From the NCBI GenBank assembly GCA_016790075.1, contig JAEUPP010000079.1, forward strand, positions 124,001-188,000: a stretch of DNA of 64,000 nucleotides. The letters run 5' to 3'. The notes under the pieces are model-generated. The model had not been told where the DNA came from and did not search any database. It worked only from the letters and a program-made list of their open reading frames with translations. The DNA is from Rhodanobacteraceae bacterium (GTDB lineage: Bacteria; Pseudomonadota; Gammaproteobacteria; Xanthomonadales; Rhodanobacteraceae). Position 1 is the first letter of the stretch, and every line of letters begins with the position of its first letter. This document shows, one piece after another, positions 2,799-21,476 of this stretch. The position numbers and the translations under genes are program-made.

Positions 2799-3718
2799 TG
2801 AAAACCCGTCCCTGTCTCTGTGCCGCCCTGTATCGCGCCGCGGTCGTGCTGCTGCTCCTGGTGAGTGCCGGCACCGCGCTGGCGCAGTCTTCTCCACAAT
2901 TAACAGATTTCACTTACCAGGGGCGGCTGCAGCAGAGCGGCGCGCCGGCCAACGGCAGTTTCGATTTCGCGTTTGCGCTGTATGACCAGGCCAGTGGTGG
3001 CAATCAGGTCGGTGCAACGGTCACCGAGACGGATTTCCCTGTCGTCGATGGCATCTTCAACGTATCGCTGAGTTTCCCAGGTGCGTTTACCGGCACGCAG
3101 CTGTATCTGCAAGTCAGCGTGGAAGGGACACCGCTGCTGCCGCGACAGGCCGTAGCGACGGCGCCCGTCGCGCAGTTCAGCCTGAGCGGCAGCATCAGTG
3201 GTCCGGCTGGCGGCGCACTCACCGGCACATACCCCAATCCCACTTTGGCCAATGCTGCAGTCGGCTCGGCGAACATCGCCGTCGGTGCAGTAAGCAATTC
3301 CAAGCTCGCTGCGGACTCGGTCACTGCGTCCAAGATATTTGCGGGTTCCGTGGACACCAGCGAGCTGGCCTCCGACGCAGTGACCGCGGAAAAGATCGCC
3401 AACGGGGCGGTCGGTACTTCGGAGATCGCCAACGACAGCATTACGCGTGGCAAGGTCGCTGGCGGCTACAGCAACGGTTCCATCGCCGTCACCGTTGGAG
3501 CGAACGACTGCAACGACTACAACCTCGCCATCAGCGGCGCAGAGGTCAACGACCTGTTGCTGTTCAACCTGCAGTCCAGTGTCGCGCTGCCGCCGAACAT
3601 GCTGATCCAGCCGCTGCGGGTGGTCAGTGCCGATACGGTGCAAGTGCGCGTGTGCAATCTCGGCAATGTCTCGCAAAGCACAGGAAACATCGGGATCTAC
3701 CTGTTGACCATGCGTTAG
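2798..3718 (+). CDS. exported repeat protein, tail-fibre-like
   Basis: The ATG at 2798 overlaps the upstream stop and has GAGGAG eight bases before it; a GTG at 2789 is a less likely start. The product has 306 residues with a signal peptide (to about residue 30, GTALAQ). The N-terminal domain contains LTDFTYQGRLQQSGAPANG and a beta-rich segment. The middle has GPAGGALTGTYPNPTLA and then degenerate repeats of about 15-16 residues (VGSANIAVGAVSNSKLA, SVTASKIFAGSVDTSELA, VTAEKIANGAVGTSEIA). Such repeats occur in phage tail-fibre proteins and in exported bacterial proteins. No enzyme motif is seen. It is probably a cell-surface or secreted structural protein, cotranscribed with the small gene before it. 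Confidence 0.75.
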   Translation: MKTRPCLCAALYRAAVVLLLLVSAGTALAQSSPQLTDFTYQGRLQQSGAPANGSFDFAFALYDQASGGNQVGATVTETDFPVVDGIFNVSLSFPGAFTGTQLYLQVSVEGTPLLPRQAVATAPVAQFSLSGSISGPAGGALTGTYPNPTLANAAVGSANIAVGAVSNSKLAADSVTASKIFAGSVDTSELASDAVTAEKIANGAVGTSEIANDSITRGKVAGGYSNGSIAVTVGANDCNDYNLAISGAEVNDLLLFNLQSSVALPPNMLIQPLRVVSADTVQVRVCNLGNVSQSTGNIGIYLLTMR

Positions 3719-17128: not shown

Positions 17129-18754
17129 TCACAGCAAGCGGGCAGCGGCGTGGATCTGCGCAAACTCGAGCCCGAACCGTTTGAGGTACTTGCGCAGACG
17201 ATCGGCGTCGTTGCTCGACGTGCGCTGCTCGCGGCTGGCCTGGAACAGGATACGACCGGCGTCGCTGGCGCTGCGCGCACTGGCACAGACGCGCAGCACG
17301 TCGGCCAGTTGTACGCGGTCGAAGCGGTCGATGGCGGCAAGCCGGTCTGCGCACAACGCTTCGAGCAAGGCATCCGAGGCAGACGCCGCCGCACCGCGCC
17401 GCGCACCGCCCCAGAGCCGGCCAAGGCGGGCGGTTTCTTCATCGACGACATCCAGCGTGATACGACCTTGTGACGCCAGCGTGGCCATGCGTGTCACCGA
17501 TGCGCCCAGGTCGCGAAAGTTGCCGGGCCAGGTCGCATCGATACTCATCGCAAAGCGCAGATAACGCTCTCGCGCCTCGCGGTTGAAGGTGATGCGCTCC
17601 CCGTGCAGGCGCGCAAAACGTTCCAGCTCGAAATCGAGATTAGGTTCTATGTCCTCAGCGCGCTCCTTGAGCCCCGGCAGGTAGAACGTCCAGAGGTTCA
17701 GCCTGGCATAAAGGTCTTCGCGGAAGCGGCCTTCGGCGACGGCAACGGCGAGATCGCGATTGGTGCCGGCGATCAGCTGGAAATCGCTGCTGACTTCGCG
17801 GTCACCGCCTAGCGGCGGAAAGCGTTTGTCCTCGATGGCGCGCAATAACATGGCCTGCTCGTCGAGACCGAGCTCACCTATTTCGTCGAGAAACAGCAGG
17901 CCGCCGTCGGCGCTCTTGAGCAGACCCGCGCGTTCGTTCTGGGCACCGGTGAAAGCGCCACGCACATGACCAAATAGCGCACTGCCGGCGCCGTCGCCGC
18001 GCAGGGTCGCGCAGTTCACCTCGACGAAACGGCCCTTGAGTGCATGGCGGCTTTGCTTCAGGTCGAACAGGTTGCGCGCCAGCATGCTCTTGCCGGCGCC
18101 GGTGGGGCCGAGCAGCAACATAGGCGCCTTGGAGCGCACCGCGACACGTTCGATCTGTTCGATCATGCGGTTGAACGTCGCGCTGCGCGTTGCGATGCCG
18201 CTCTTGAGAAAGCTCGCCGTGTCGGCGCGATCACGCGCGAAACGCTGCGCAATGCGGTCATAACGTGCGAGATCGAGATCGATGATTGCGTACTTGCCGG
18301 CATCACCGGAGCGCTGCTTTGGCGGCGGGGAGGTCTGCAGCAATCGCGCCGGAAAGAACCGTGCCTCGGTCAGCAGGAACCAGCAGATCTGCGCGACATG
18401 GGTGCCAGTGGAAATGTGGACCAAATAATCTTCGCGCTCGGGGTCGAACGGATAGCGGCGCGCGAAGTCATGCAGTGCGCCAAACACTTCCTCGAAATCC
18501 CAGGGATCAGACAGATGGAAATCGTGGATCCGCACCTCGGTTTCCGGGCTGACCTTGGCAAGATCCGCCTGCAGGCAGCCTGCAAGCTTTTTGTATTTGC
18601 GTTCGTCGAGCAGCAGTTCGAGCCGGGCGATCAGCAGATCCTCGTACATGCCCAGGGCAACCGTCGGTCGCCATTTCTCCCAGCGCCCGGGCCCGTCGGC
18701 CGCATCCAGCACGGTGCCGACGAAGCCGATCACAACCAGCGGTTTGTTTTGCAT
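17129..18754 (-). CDS. rtcR: sigma-54-dependent activator of RNA repair, RtcR
   Basis: A 541-residue bacterial enhancer-binding protein. The N-terminal domain (1-180) is the RtcR-type CARF domain: VVIGFVGTVLDAADG, the RWEKWRPTVAL segment, and DYLVHISTGTHVAQICWFLLTEARFFPARLLQTSPP. The AAA+ domain (about 190-430) has Walker A (LLGPTGAGKSMLA), the sigma-54 contact loop GAFTGAQNERAG, and Walker B (GGLLFLDEIGELG). The C-terminal 100 residues form the DNA-binding end. CARF domains of RtcR sense RNA ends produced by damage, and the protein then opens the sigma-54 promoter of rtcBA. Here it is divergent from rtcB, with a fitting sigma-54 promoter at 18883. Confidence 0.95.
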   Translation of the reverse strand: MQNKPLVVIGFVGTVLDAADGPGRWEKWRPTVALGMYEDLLIARLELLLDERKYKKLAGCLQADLAKVSPETEVRIHDFHLSDPWDFEEVFGALHDFARRYPFDPEREDYLVHISTGTHVAQICWFLLTEARFFPARLLQTSPPPKQRSGDAGKYAIIDLDLARYDRIAQRFARDRADTASFLKSGIATRSATFNRMIEQIERVAVRSKAPMLLLGPTGAGKSMLARNLFDLKQSRHALKGRFVEVNCATLRGDGAGSALFGHVRGAFTGAQNERAGLLKSADGGLLFLDEIGELGLDEQAMLLRAIEDKRFPPLGGDREVSSDFQLIAGTNRDLAVAVAEGRFREDLYARLNLWTFYLPGLKERAEDIEPNLDFELERFARLHGERITFNREARERYLRFAMSIDATWPGNFRDLGASVTRMATLASQGRITLDVVDEETARLGRLWGGARRGAAASASDALLEALCADRLAAIDRFDRVQLADVLRVCASARSASDAGRILFQASREQRTSSNDADRLRKYLKRFGLEFAQIHAAARLL

Positions 18755-18770
18755 GGCTCACCCCGATGAT

Positions 18771-18786
18771 TTATCCGGAAGGATAA
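18771..18786. promoter_or_regulatory. palindrome between rtcR and the rtcB promoter, possible RtcR site
   Basis: TTATCC at 18771-18776 and GGATAA at 18781-18786 form a perfect inverted repeat around GGAA. It lies about 100 bases upstream of the sigma-54 promoter and 17 bases before the rtcR start, the right place for an enhancer site of the activator and for autoregulation. The RtcR consensus is not known to me, so the assignment is positional. Confidence 0.4.
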
Positions 18787-18882: not shown

Positions 18883-18898
18883 TGGCACGCGACTTGAT
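18883..18898 (+). promoter_or_regulatory. sigma-54 promoter of the rtcB operon
   Basis: TGGCACGCGACTTGAT has GG at 18884-18885 and, after exactly ten bases, GA at 18896-18897 (consensus GC). The -24 half is perfect and the -12 half differs by one base. It lies between rtcR, a sigma-54 activator, and rtcB. Transcription would begin near 18909, giving a leader of about 630 bases. Confidence 0.75.
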
Positions 18899-19081
18899 AT
18901 AGCTGATCCGCGCCGGGACGGAACAGCGACCGGCGGGATGGCTCCGAATGGCAGGTCTCACCGCCCCGCCCTGACGTGAGCCCTGTCGTCGCGGGGCCGT
19001 GACCTGGCCCCGGCGCAGCTACGGAAACGGACATGGCCGCAGCGAATGGGCGCTGCGGCCGCCACGATCACGGTTTGGTCG

Positions 19082-19217
19082 CGGCAGCGAATGCCCGCAG
19101 GACTACATGGATCCAGCGCCGCAAGGCATGCAGGGGTGAAAGCCCCCGCCGGTGGGACGCCACCGTGGCGGAAGACAGACGCACTGGATAAACGTCTTGC
19201 AACTATTGTCGCTGCCG
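19082..19217 (+). ncRNA. Y-RNA-like double-stem element A with branched head
   Basis: Outer stem CGGCAGCGA (19082-19090) pairs perfectly with TCGCTGCCG (19209-19217). The 5' internal loop is ATGCCC and the 3' loop AACTATTG. Inner stem GCAGGAC (19097-19103) pairs with GTCTTGC (19194-19200) with one G-T pair. The head begins TACATGG and is closed by ATCCAG (19111-19116) with CTGGAT (19184-19189). Inside lie a GCC-GCAA-GGC hairpin, a GGGG/CCCC hairpin and a long stem around GGTGG-GACG-CCACC. Confidence 0.6.
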
Positions 19218-19297
19218 TGGCCATCAACGGGCGCCGAGGCCCCGCCCGCCAATCAGGGCCTCGCCATTGCTACAAGAAAACACGCTGCGGCCTTGCC

Positions 19298-19378
19298 GCA
19301 AGCGGCGAATGCTGAGCCGGGACTACATTCTCCTGTTAAGAGCCACGTCTCGGCTGATGGTCCTTTGTCGCCGCTTGC
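19298..19378 (+). ncRNA. Y-RNA-like double-stem element B
   Basis: Outer stem GCAAGCGGCGA (19298-19308) pairs perfectly with TCGCCGCTTGC (19368-19378). The 5' internal loop is ATGCTG and the 3' loop is 12 bases ending TTTG. Inner stem AGCCGGGAC (19315-19323) pairs with GTCTCGGCT (19347-19355) with one G-T pair. The terminal loop is 23 bases and begins TACATTCTCC. It is the simplest copy of the shared architecture, without a branched head. Confidence 0.65.
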
Positions 19379-19508
19379 TGCAGTGCCGCGAATGCCTGCC
19401 GGTCTACATTGGAAGCGTTGGTCGCGGGTTCGAGTCCCGCCGGCGCTCGCGCCGTAGCTCAGCGGTTAGAGCGACGTTCGACCGGCCATAACTTGTCGCG
19501 TCACTGCA
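19379..19508 (+). ncRNA. Y-RNA-like element C with circularly permuted tRNA-like head
   Basis: Outer stem TGCAGTGCCGCGA (19379-19391) pairs with TCGCGTCACTGCA (19496-19508) with one mismatch. Internal loops are ATGCCT and CATAACTTG. Inner stem GCCGGTC (19398-19404) pairs with GACCGGC (19480-19486). The head contains a T-arm (GCGGG, loop TTCGAGT, CCCGC; 19424-19440) and then an acceptor-like stem closed by CTCG (CGGCG/CGCCG; 19441-19454). The linker TA leads to a D-arm (GCTC, loop AGCGGTTA, GAGC; 19457-19472). The order T-arm, closed acceptor, D-arm is that of a permuted tRNA, as described for YrlA-type bacterial Y RNAs encoded near rtcB. It ends 34 bases before the rtcB start. Confidence 0.75.
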
Positions 19509-19542
19509 ACAACAAGAAACGAACAACAAAGAGAGTATTGCC

Positions 19543-20766
19543 ATGAACACCGCCCTCCATCAGACCCTTCACGACGAAGGTGCCGTGCCGATCAAGGCCT
19601 GGATCAACGGCGTGCCGTTGGAAGAAGGAGCACGCAAGCAGCTACGCAATATGGCGCGGCTGCCCATCGTAGGTCCCTGGATTGCGGTCATGCCCGACGT
19701 GCATCTGGGTATCGGTGCCACCGTCGGTTCGGTAGTCCCGACCGAGGGCGCGATCATCCCCGCAGCGGTTGGTGTCGACATCGGCTGCGGCATGATGGCG
19801 TACCAGACCACGCTGCGTGCCGACCAGTTGCCGGAAAGTCTGCAGACCTTGCGCAGCGATATCGAACGTGCTGTGCCGCATGGCTTTGTTACGGTGGACG
19901 GCCGCAGCCTCAAGGGCAACTGGATCGTCGCTCCGAACTCCGCGACCACGCGCTGGCGGCAGCTGGAAACACGCTACCGTTCGCTGGTCGAGCGCCATCC
20001 GCGCATTTCGCACAAGTCGCCGTTGAGCCAGCTGGGCTCACTCGGCGGCGGCAACCACTTCATCGAACTCTGCCTGGACGAAAACGATCAGGTCTGGGTG
20101 ATGCTGCATTCGGGTTCCCGCGGGGTCGGCAACGGTATCGGCCAGTACTTCATCGAGAAGGCGCGTAATGAAATGCAAAAGCAGCAGGCCAACCTGCCCG
20201 ACCGCGACCTCGCCTATTTCAGCGAAGGCAGTACGCTGTTTGCGGACTATGTGGATGCGGTGGAGTGGGCGCAGGAATACGCTGCGCAGAACCGGCAGCA
20301 GATGATGGAGACCGTGCTCGGCGTGTTGCGCAAGCATCTGCCGGCGTTCCAGCTCACCCGCATGGCGATCAACTGCCATCACAACTACGTGCAGCGTGAA
20401 ACGCATTTCGGGCGTGAGCTCTATGTCACGCGCAAGGGCGCGGTGAGCGCACGCGAAGGTCAGTTCGGCATCATTCCCGGCAGCATGGGCGCGCAGAGTT
20501 TTATCGTGCGCGGCCTTGGGAACGAGGAGAGTTTCTGCTCGTGTTCACATGGTGCGGGTCGCGTCATGAGCCGTACCGAAGCGAAAAAGCGGATCACGCT
20601 GGGTGAACACCGCGCAGCCACAGCTCATGTCGAATGCCGCAAGGATGCCGACGTGATCGACGAGTCGCCAGCGGCCTACAAGCCCATCGACAAGGTCATG
20701 GCCGCACAGCGCGATCTCGTCGAGATCATGCATACCTTGCGTCAGGTCGTCTGCGTCAAGGGTTGA
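19543..20766 (+). CDS. rtcB: RNA ligase RtcB
   Basis: A 407-residue protein of the length of E. coli RtcB. It has PDVHLGIGATVGSVVPTEGAIIP, the metal site VGVDIGCGM with the conserved Cys, LGGGNHFIE, MLHSGSRGVGN, HHNY in the second metal site, and SHGAGRVMSR, whose His is the guanylylated residue in the family. RtcB joins RNA 2',3'-cyclic phosphate or 3'-phosphate ends to 5'-OH ends using GTP and Mn. The start ATG follows AAAGAGAGTATTGCC. It is the first gene after the structured leader and is followed by an unknown gene (5-base gap) and rtcA. Confidence 0.97.
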   Translation: MNTALHQTLHDEGAVPIKAWINGVPLEEGARKQLRNMARLPIVGPWIAVMPDVHLGIGATVGSVVPTEGAIIPAAVGVDIGCGMMAYQTTLRADQLPESLQTLRSDIERAVPHGFVTVDGRSLKGNWIVAPNSATTRWRQLETRYRSLVERHPRISHKSPLSQLGSLGGGNHFIELCLDENDQVWVMLHSGSRGVGNGIGQYFIEKARNEMQKQQANLPDRDLAYFSEGSTLFADYVDAVEWAQEYAAQNRQQMMETVLGVLRKHLPAFQLTRMAINCHHNYVQRETHFGRELYVTRKGAVSAREGQFGIIPGSMGAQSFIVRGLGNEESFCSCSHGAGRVMSRTEAKKRITLGEHRAATAHVECRKDADVIDESPAAYKPIDKVMAAQRDLVEIMHTLRQVVCVKG

Positions 20767-20771
20767 AAACC

Positions 20772-21476
20772 ATGCGCAACGACCTGCACGAAGTGCTGAT
20801 AGAACGGCCGCGCCGCGGCCATCGCCTGAAGACTGCGCGCGGCAACAAGCCGCGCGCAGCGGAGTGGACTGGCGAGGACAGCTACGCCGACAGCTATGAA
20901 CCGCGCCAGCGGCGGACGAAGTTTTTCGATGACCTGCTGGCGCCGCTGCGGCGCTGGCTGCGCCGTCAGGTCGGTCGTCCCTGGAACAAGATCTGGAGTG
21001 AGCTCACGGCAAGCATCGACACGCGTTCGGTGGTCGGCCGGCACCTGCTCGATCACGTGCGCCAGCTGGTGGTGATCAGTGCGGATTACGACGCAGCACA
21101 GCGCGCGGTCATCCTGAAGCCGCATCTGCGCCGTCGCAGCGCGCCGGACGAGCCAGTCGATGGACTCTATGTCGATCCACGTACTGGTGTGTTGCGCTGG
21201 CGCGAGCCGGTACCGCGGCGGGTGCTGCGGCGCCTGCCGCCGGCACCCCGGTTCGATAGCGCCGGAAATCCGATCGAGTTTCGACCGATGGCCCCGACAC
21301 GTGGTTACTTCAGAGGCAAGGGCATCTGGTATGAAGTCGAGATCGCCGCTATAGCGCCGACGACACGCTCGGTGCCGTTTGATCTGATGTGCAATGGGTT
21401 TCCGTTTCGGATCACCCACAAACGCCAGCTCAACTCGCGAGAGTTGCTGGCTGCAGGACTCAATAACGAAGCCTGA
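20772..21476 (+). CDS. basic protein of unknown function within the rtc operon
   Basis: The ATG at 20772, five bases after rtcB, gives 234 residues. The N-terminal 45 residues are very basic and probably unstructured (RPRRGHRLKTARGNKPRA). A helical centre follows (FFDDLLAPLRRWLRRQVGRPWNKIWSELTASIDTRSVVGRHLLDHVRQLVVI). The C-terminal part is beta-rich with GLYVDPRTGVLRWREP, TRGYFRGKGIWYEVEIAAI and DLMCNGFPFRITHKRQLNSRELL. I do not recognise a family. Its position between rtcB and rtcA and its basic charge suggest an RNA- or ribosome-associated role in repair; this is inference. Confidence 0.75.
   Translation: MRNDLHEVLIERPRRGHRLKTARGNKPRAAEWTGEDSYADSYEPRQRRTKFFDDLLAPLRRWLRRQVGRPWNKIWSELTASIDTRSVVGRHLLDHVRQLVVISADYDAAQRAVILKPHLRRRSAPDEPVDGLYVDPRTGVLRWREPVPRRVLRRLPPAPRFDSAGNPIEFRPMAPTRGYFRGKGIWYEVEIAAIAPTTRSVPFDLMCNGFPFRITHKRQLNSRELLAAGLNNEA

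What the first reader, a model, noticed from the sequence alone, without database searches (positions are those of the whole stretch)
18909..19542. Tandem double-stem RNA elements in the sigma-54-driven rtcB leader
Three elements (19082-19217, 19298-19378, 19379-19508) share a layout that I can pair base by base. The outer stem ends CGA, then comes a six-base loop ATGCYN, an inner stem of 7-9 bp ending in C, and TACATK. A 3' loop ends TTG before TCG. The outer stems differ completely in sequence but stay paired (9, 11 and 13 positions), which is covariation within one leader. A fourth degenerate copy starts at about 18941 and a perfect 10-bp hairpin at 19035. RtcR controls this promoter, so the RNA would be made only under RNA damage. 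The conserved loop bases suggest a binding site for Ro60/Rsr, RtcR or another repair protein. No Rsr gene is in the window.
Basis: partly seen in the sequence, partly recalled or inferred. Interest (0 to 1): 0.92.

Follow-up and report, generated by a model that had tools for sequence, protein, structure and literature searches.

The report
Y RNA array with tRNA-Leu mimic
The untranslated start of a bacterial RNA-repair operon encodes three Y RNAs, small RNAs that partner the Ro60-like protein Rsr: two resemble known types, and one carries a rearranged copy of a leucine tRNA, a kind of tRNA imitation I found no report of.

Summary
The three elements are real and are bacterial Y RNAs. Element 3 is Rfam YrlA (78.8 bits). 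Element 2 is a weak YrlB match (23.9 bits, below gathering). Element 1 (19076-19223) has the same Y stem, but its interior (19112-19188) is a circularly permuted tRNA-Leu. A covariance model built only from five permuted tRNA-Leu of this genome finds it first in the window (36.1 bits, E 9e-7); a permuted class I model does not report it. Five homologous copies lie in three other Tahibacter genomes and one genome of another family, with compensatory changes. In 22 of 41 RtcR loci rsr lies between promoter and rtcB; here it sits on another contig behind its own sigma-54-like site. Y RNAs were found in 27 of 28 RtcR genomes with rsr and 0 of 13 without. The 19035 hairpin is a separate conserved element (hexaloop mostly AAURRG, 10 covarying pairs, 25 of 38 evaluated leaders). 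The 'fourth copy' at 18941 is not supported. New variant of a known kind.

The parts
17129..18754 (-). rtcR, sigma-54 activator with RtcR (CARF-like) domain
   Evidence: Pfam RtcR 264.7 bits; NCBIfam NF038308 804.4 bits, over cut-off
18883..18896 (+). sigma-54-type promoter TGGCACGCGACTTG of the rtcB operon
   Evidence: pattern in the window and upstream of rtcB in congeners L057, L063, L066, L067
18910..19016 (+). leader 5' part closed by GCGCCGGG / CCCGGCGC; similar closing stem in the congeners' leaders
   Evidence: read by eye from sequences; not tested statistically
19035..19060 (+). conserved hairpin GGCCGCAGCG-AATGGG-CGCTGCGGCC; family with hexaloop mostly AAURRG upstream of Y RNAs or rtcB
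   Evidence: one copy in own genome
19076..19223 (+). element 1 (Y1): Y RNA with permuted tRNA-Leu (class II) effector module
   Evidence: fold z -4.26; Y stem; conserved with covariation
19112..19188 (+). tRNA-Leu-like module of Y1: variable arm, T arm (loop UGAAAGC), capped acceptor, U8-G9, Leu D arm, anticodon-stem stub
   Evidence: model R1 36.1 bits E 9.4e-7; all 5 own tRNA-Leu rank first for the 3' half; not reported by R2
19297..19379 (+). element 2: short YrlB-like Y RNA without tRNA parts
   Evidence: RF02565 23.9 bits E 0.026, below gathering 97; fold z -3.59; homologues in L057, L063, L067
19385..19505 (+). element 3: YrlA Y RNA (outer stem by scanner 19375-19512)
   Evidence: RF02553 78.8 bits, E 1.5e-16, above gathering
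19414..19478 (+). class I tRNA-like module of YrlA
   Evidence: permuted class I model R2 65.0 bits
19543..20766 (+). rtcB RNA ligase
   Evidence: Pfam RtcB 435.7 bits
20772..21476 (+). ORF of 234 aa between rtcB and rtcA, no Pfam or NCBIfam match
   Evidence: tblastn homologues after rtcB in L043, L051, L055, L056, L057, L063, L066, L067, L068, L070
21506..22546 (+). rtcA RNA 3'-phosphate cyclase
   Evidence: Pfam RTC 258.4 bits; TIGR03399 over cut-off

Best explanation
The rtcB leader is a Y RNA array. When RtcR senses RNA damage it fires the sigma-54 promoter, and the leader is transcribed with rtcB-orf-rtcA. Three Y RNAs are then cut out of it. Each Y stem (CGA, AUGCNN, inner stem, UACAU, UUG-UCG) would bind Rsr, which this genome makes from an unlinked gene behind its own sigma-54-like promoter. 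The loop side carries the effector: YrlA a permuted class I tRNA shape, the YrlB-like RNA nothing tRNA-like, and Y1 a permuted class II tRNA-Leu with changed T and D loops. The tRNA-like modules would tether or gate Rsr toward RNA enzymes, as YrlA does for PNPase, Y1 offering a tRNA-Leu-shaped handle. Shown by computation: Y RNA identity, the tRNA-Leu resemblance and conservation of Y1, co-occurrence with rsr, promoter-like sites. Inferred: transcription, processing, Rsr binding, PNPase or other partners, and what Y1 does.
For: YrlA above the Rfam gathering score; weak YrlB for element 2, in the Salmonella order B, A, rtcB (order from PMC9879122, passage). Y1: model R1, made only from own tRNA-Leu, ranks it first in 64 kb; for its 3' half all five own tRNA-Leu isoacceptors rank 1-5 of 42 tRNAs; the class I model R2 gives 50 matches of 42-65 bits in 48 sources (3 of them in L077 and L078, which hold tRNA arrays) and reports none of the six Leu-type copies. 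Five-sequence alignment: 92.7% of cells paired, 9 pairs changed on both sides, slid controls 0-2. The own Rsr homologue is 49-65% identical to Rsr of rtcR-linked operons of relatives and 69-73% to unlinked Rsr of congeners; TGGCACAGCGATTG stands just before its ATG. Rsr and Y RNAs co-occur, Fisher p 8e-10.
Against: No expression data. Element 2 does not reach the YrlB gathering score. The own-genome Rsr is below the TROVE cut-off (20.1 versus 23 bits) and far below the Rsr equivalog cut-off (64 versus 900). R1 alone does not separate the types: some class I modules score up to 34 bits while the Leu-type copies of L057 and L068 score 24.6 and 19.6. In the half-by-half alignments only the window's 3' half beats all 300 shuffles; in the other copies the best score (24-28) lies within the shuffle maximum (26-31), and no 5' half stands out. 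Co-occurrence counts ignore relatedness. In G045 (L070, 80% complete) a Y-like element (R3 33.8 bits) stands without a found rsr. The congener G012 lacks both and keeps rtcBA, so the array is dispensable for the operon.
Confidence: 0.82

Rival explanations
1. Y1 is a decaying ordinary YrlA whose resemblance to tRNA-Leu is chance or drift.
For: Rfam YrlA aligns to it weakly (20.3 bits); it lacks the UUC T loop and the D-loop GG; half-alignments of most copies do not exceed all shuffles.
Against: The Leu features (TGGCGRAA..ACGC D arm with 3-bp stem, T loop NGNAAGY) are kept in six copies over five genomes with compensatory changes; the class I model reports none of them; R1 E-value 9e-7 in the window.
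Confidence: 0.07
2. The leader RNAs act in cis, as a regulatory leader of rtcB (attenuator, stability or translation control), not as separate Rsr partners.
For: They lie directly between promoter and rtcB; here rsr is unlinked; the AAURRG-type hairpin is also present in six leaders without rsr or scanner-found Y RNAs (L037, L050, L054, L062, L066, L069).
Against: Y RNAs are absent where rsr is absent (0 of 13), as expected of trans partners of Rsr; YrlA-type RNAs bind Rsr and PNPase in trans (PMC8394870, passage).
Confidence: 0.12
3. Y1 is a decoy or competitor for tRNA-cutting nucleases or for the RtcR ligand site, rather than a tether.
For: Its 3' half copies the tRNA-Leu 5' half; RtcR binds 5' tRNA fragments with cyclic phosphate, and competitive inhibition of the nuclease by YrlA was proposed (PMC7790460, passages).
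Against: It has no anticodon loop: the Y stem takes its place. Fragments of YrlA were not detected on nuclease activation in Salmonella (PMC7790460, passage), which speaks against its being a substrate, though not against competition.
Confidence: 0.15

Closest known systems
YrlA, Rfam RF02553 (Salmonella rsr-yrlBA-rtcBA; structure 6CU1 as cited in PMC8394870 and PMC11472068, passages)
   Same: Y stem motif, place before rtcB under RtcR, circularly permuted tRNA-like module; element 3 is a member
   Different: Y1 copies a class II tRNA-Leu (variable arm, Leu D arm) with an NGNAAGY T loop and no GG in the D loop; the class I modules seen here have UUCRANN
YrlB, Rfam RF02565
   Same: Element 2 is short, has the Y stem and no tRNA parts, and precedes YrlA as in Salmonella
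   Different: Scores 23.9 bits against a gathering score of 97
rsr-yrlBA-rtcBA RNA repair operon
   Same: divergent rtcR, sigma-54 promoter, Y RNAs, rtcB, rtcA
   Different: rsr is on another contig with its own sigma-54-like promoter; a third Y RNA type and a conserved hairpin precede the known pair

Membership tests
YrlA (RF02553), element 3 | covariance model at or above gathering score 69 | tested here: met
   78.8 bits
YrlA (RF02553), element 1 | covariance model at or above gathering score 69 | tested here: not met
   20.3 bits
YrlA (RF02553), element 1 | permuted class I tRNA module with UUCRANN T loop and GG D loop | tested here: not met
   not reported by R2 at E up to 10; T loop UGAAAGC
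YrlB (RF02565), element 2 | covariance model at or above gathering score 97 | tested here: not met
   23.9 bits, E 0.026
Bacterial Y RNAs in the broad sense, elements 1-3 | conserved Y stem motif and co-occurrence with rsr | tested here: met
Bacterial Y RNAs in the broad sense, elements 1-3 | stable RNA bound by Rsr | not testable with these tools
   no RNA or binding data
tRNA-Leu mimic, element 1 | found by a model of permuted tRNA-Leu and not by one of permuted class I tRNA | tested here: met
Rsr/Ro60 (TROVE), unlinked gene in own genome | TROVE gathering score 23 | tested here: inconclusive
   20.1 bits, below; but PDB Rsr 2nvo E 1.7e-19 and homologous to operonic Rsr of relatives, several of which are also below the cut-off

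The most novel reading that the evidence does not exclude
Lysobacterales RNA-repair operons carry Y RNA sets whose effector modules imitate different tRNA classes (class I, class II Leu with a rebuilt elbow, a Gln/Glu-like D arm, D-arm-less T-arm minihelices). Each would route Rsr to a different tRNA-handling enzyme or damaged tRNA. The Leu-type module lost the D-loop/T-loop contact of ordinary tRNA and gained its own partner; the AAURRG hairpin is a further uncharacterised regulatory RNA of RtcR operons.
Probability: 0.25. Interest if true: 0.82.

Novelty: new variant of a known kind. Interest (0 to 1): 0.62.

Why it matters
Bacterial Y RNAs are the RNA half of Ro60-type particles, yet what their loops do is known for few cases. 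A Y RNA that copies tRNA-Leu while changing exactly the loops that hold a tRNA elbow together gives a natural contrast to YrlA: the two lie in one operon and can be compared directly for PNPase, DusA/TruB or RtcR binding. The split regulon and the joint absence of Y RNAs and rsr make the Rsr link testable. The AAURRG hairpin is a conserved, covarying RNA element for which I found no Rfam match.

Tried and rejected
Fourth degenerate copy at 18941: fold no better than shuffles; motif not seen by eye in the congeners' leaders.

19035 hairpin as a mini Y RNA or as a dispersed palindrome: rejected. With up to 3 mismatches the own genome has one copy; six congeneric genomes together gave 8 hits, 5 of them at the operon (0-1 mismatch) and 3 elsewhere with 3 mismatches, and the backward control also hit in three genomes. 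In the evaluated loci no AATRRG outside the leaders sat on a stem of 8 bp or more.

RF02553 hits on contig C7 of the own genome: tRNA genes, not Y RNAs.

Leu-type elsewhere: the exact pattern gave 3 contigs in genome contigs, all Tahibacter, and 14 viral contigs, about what chance gives for that shorter pattern by my estimate, not inspected further. R3 in 340 genomes of the class matched 3: own, G464 and G635. In G635 the modules are class I (R2 38-60 bits); in G464 one is class I (64 bits) and the one that brought the locus in is a Y RNA with two plain hairpins and no tRNA parts. blastn found nothing in phages or plasmids.

Other R3 matches of at most 49 bits in the family: of eleven loci asked for, eight were displayed. 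By eye, six of the seven displayed are D-arm-less T-arm modules and one (L161) has a Gln/Glu-like D arm; L147 is class I. L156 and L162 were not displayed; R2 finds class I modules of 56-60 bits in those stretches, but not at the R3 matches themselves. L148 (G011, 24.7 bits), with a Leu-D-like string, has no CGAATG motif and only 8.3 bits by R1: taken as chance.

Scanner rows dropped before counting: hits outside the RtcR-RtcB interval or on the other strand, in L037, L053, L058, L060, L062, L064 (minus), L067 (7218), L068 (7611), L069, L072, L073 (plus), L077 and L080. In one search, L061 and L071 were skipped because rtcB was not in the fetched stretch, and L073 was not in the list.

Full report
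Setting. The window lies in a 5.6-Mb genome (G000, contig C66). It belongs to the genus Tahibacter by inference: an exact Y1 pattern hit only T. aquaticus, T. harae and T. caeni among named genomes, and their contig lengths equal those of the congeners G291, G328 and G384. rtcR (17129-18754, minus), rtcB (19543-20766), an unassigned ORF and rtcA are as expected. A sigma-54-type promoter lies at 18883-18896. Between it and rtcB is a leader of about 640 bases.

What the elements are. At gathering scores Rfam finds one feature in the window, YrlA at 19385-19505 (78.8 bits). With relaxed thresholds element 2 is a weak YrlB and element 1 a weak YrlA (23.9 and 20.3 bits, both below the gathering scores). 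A motif scan of 47 fetched loci plus the window shows the same Y stem repeatedly between rsr (or rtcR) and rtcB. Tandem arrays are common in relatives: several loci carry two to five copies.

Element 1 carries tRNA-Leu. Its interior reads as variable arm, T arm, capped acceptor, U8-G9, D arm and anticodon-stem stub, that is, a tRNA opened at the anticodon and closed at the acceptor end, as in YrlA. The source is tRNA-Leu. Local alignment of the 3' half (acceptor plus D arm) of the window copy against 42 own-genome tRNAs ranks the five tRNA-Leu isoacceptors 1 to 5 (32, 28, 26, 22, 22; next 17; shuffles mean 19.6, sd 2.2, maximum 28 of 300). The five also rank first for the copies in L057 and L067b, and four Leu rank first in L063 and L067a; but in these four copies the best score (24-28) does not exceed the best of 300 shuffles (26-31). 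For the 5' half tRNA-Leu(taa) is first or tied first in three of five copies and another tRNA in two, and none stands out from shuffles. As an independent test I built covariance model R1 from the five own tRNA-Leu in permuted order, with no Y RNA in it. In the 64-kb window its top hit is 19112-19188 (36.1 bits, E 9.4e-7, rough calibration); next is the YrlA module (24.7), then noise at 10.4. Model R2, from ten permuted class I tRNAs, gives the window's YrlA 65.0 bits and in all 50 matches of 42 bits or more in 48 sources, 47 of them outside L077 and L078, which hold tRNA arrays. It reports none of the six Leu-type copies at E up to 10. A result against a simple reading: R1 alone does not sort the types, since class I modules reach 34 bits while the Leu-type copies of L057 and L068 score 24.6 and 19.6.

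Conservation. Leu-type copies occur in four Tahibacter genomes, own included (two copies in L067), and in G052, a genome of another family (L068). Searched with R3, which contains five of the six copies by construction, 233 genomes of the family give Leu-type scores (99-153 bits) in 4 genomes, all among the 8 of the genus, and at most 49 bits elsewhere at E up to 1e-4. Of 9 genomes of G052's family only G052 does (102.6 bits). The five-sequence alignment has 92.7% of cells paired, 9 pairs changed on both sides and 12 such cells (slid controls 0-2 for both); 0 of 500 shuffles reach these values, 10 of 500 reach the count of further pair types; the structure was derived from the same alignment, which favours it over slid versions. 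RNAalifold on the four Tahibacter copies gives outer stem, inner stem, stub, variable arm, T arm, acceptor and D arm; with L068 added the acceptor is not predicted. In the five copies that the scanner typed, the T loop is UGAAAGC, UGAAAGU, CGAAAGU, UGAAAGU and UGCAAGU, whereas all 33 elements with a class I D arm have UUCRANN; the scanner allowed only these loop forms. The D loop lacks the GG that in tRNA meets the T loop (tRNA contacts recalled, not from a call). So both partners of the elbow contact differ together.

Rsr. The own genome has one TROVE protein, on contig C44. It is 49-65% identical to Rsr linked to rtcR in relatives and 69-73% to the unlinked Rsr of three congeners. In 22 of the 41 RtcR loci the Rsr match lies between rtcR and rtcB. 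Here TGGCACAGCGATTG stands just before the rsr ATG on C44, and similar sites precede the unlinked rsr of L080, L075 and L076. So the RtcR regulon seems split in two; control of the second site by RtcR is inferred. Of 41 genomes with RtcR over its cut-off among 398 of the order, 28 have Rsr (the forty-second genome searched, G158, has none). The scanner finds Y RNAs in 27 of these 28, the exception being a contig end (L061), and in 0 of 13 without Rsr (Fisher p 8e-10; 1 of 13 and p 2e-8 if a weak element in L070 is counted; in L071, one of the 13, rtcB was not in the fetched stretch). Relatedness is not corrected for. This joint absence is the main reason to read the RNAs as Rsr partners.

The hairpin. 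19035-19060 is one of a family. In the fetched loci, hairpins with loop AATNN(G/A) and at least 7 bp number 27 on the operon strand, all with 9 bp or more, and 5 on the other strand with 7-8 bp. Taking the loop first, without regard to pairing, AATRRG occurs 41 times in 38 evaluated leaders and 22 of these sit on stems of at least 8 bp; elsewhere in the same loci it occurs 104 times and none does. Nineteen leaders have it strictly, 22 with AATNN(G/A) loops, 25 if a stem mismatch or AATGGT is allowed. In 21 distinct hairpins all 10 pairs vary on both sides, 98.6% of cells are paired and the covariation score is 0.963 against at most 0.207 when slid; pairing was part of the selection of these rows. 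It stands before Y1 copies and before some other Y RNAs, and is present in six leaders without rsr or scanner-found Y RNAs. Rfam has no match there on the operon strand at E up to 5. I propose processing, stability or antitermination of the long untranslated leader, at low confidence.

Mechanism. Shown: the sequence facts above. From the literature: RtcR is activated by tRNA fragments with cyclic phosphate (PMC7790460, passages); the YrlA stem tethers Rsr and its tRNA-like part binds PNPase, and DusA and TruB act on it (PMC8394870, passage). Inferred: these RNAs are made on RNA damage, cut from the leader, bound by Rsr made at the second locus, and present different handles, Y1 a tRNA-Leu-shaped one that TruB should not modify.

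Novelty. YrlA, YrlB and the operon are known. For Leu-type Y RNAs I searched the held library and found no report in the listings; Chen 2014, the Sim and Wolin 2018 review and the NAR 2016 paper are not held, so they may describe related modules. New variant of a known kind.

Noticed in passing
19035-19060; relatives L034-L072: Conserved hairpin with hexaloop AAURRG (AAUNNG/A in Tahibacter) and covarying 10-bp stem in RtcR-operon leaders, no Rfam match, present also in six leaders without rsr and Y RNAs.
   Followed up: partly
L036, L058, L155, L157, L160, L163: Y RNAs whose effector has a T arm and a hairpin, often a variable-arm-like hairpin, but no D arm: a tRNA minihelix type (by eye).
   Followed up: partly
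L161 (G839), match from 1501: Y RNA with a D arm TCGTCCAATGGCAGGAC like tRNA-Gln/Glu (R2 38.3 bits), hinting at further tRNA isotypes copied by Y RNAs.
   Followed up: partly
L070 (G045), 3204-3360 minus: rtcR-rtcB leader holding two tRNA genes by ARAGORN (Asp and His) next to a Y-like element.
   Followed up: partly
L141 (G464), 1501-1608 minus: Y RNA whose effector is two plain hairpins, next to a class I YrlA, in another family of the class.
   Followed up: no
20772-21476: ORF of 234 aa between rtcB and rtcA without Pfam or NCBIfam match, conserved after rtcB in ten fetched loci.
   Followed up: partly
   Followed up: partly
18771-18786: Inverted repeat TTATCCggaaGGATAA upstream of the promoter, also seen by eye in the four congeners; candidate RtcR binding site.
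   Followed up: no
L079 and L080, just downstream of unlinked rsr: A similar small uncharacterised gene (MDIDLFQLIARYNEL... in G000) follows unlinked rsr in G000 and G384 (by eye).
   Followed up: no
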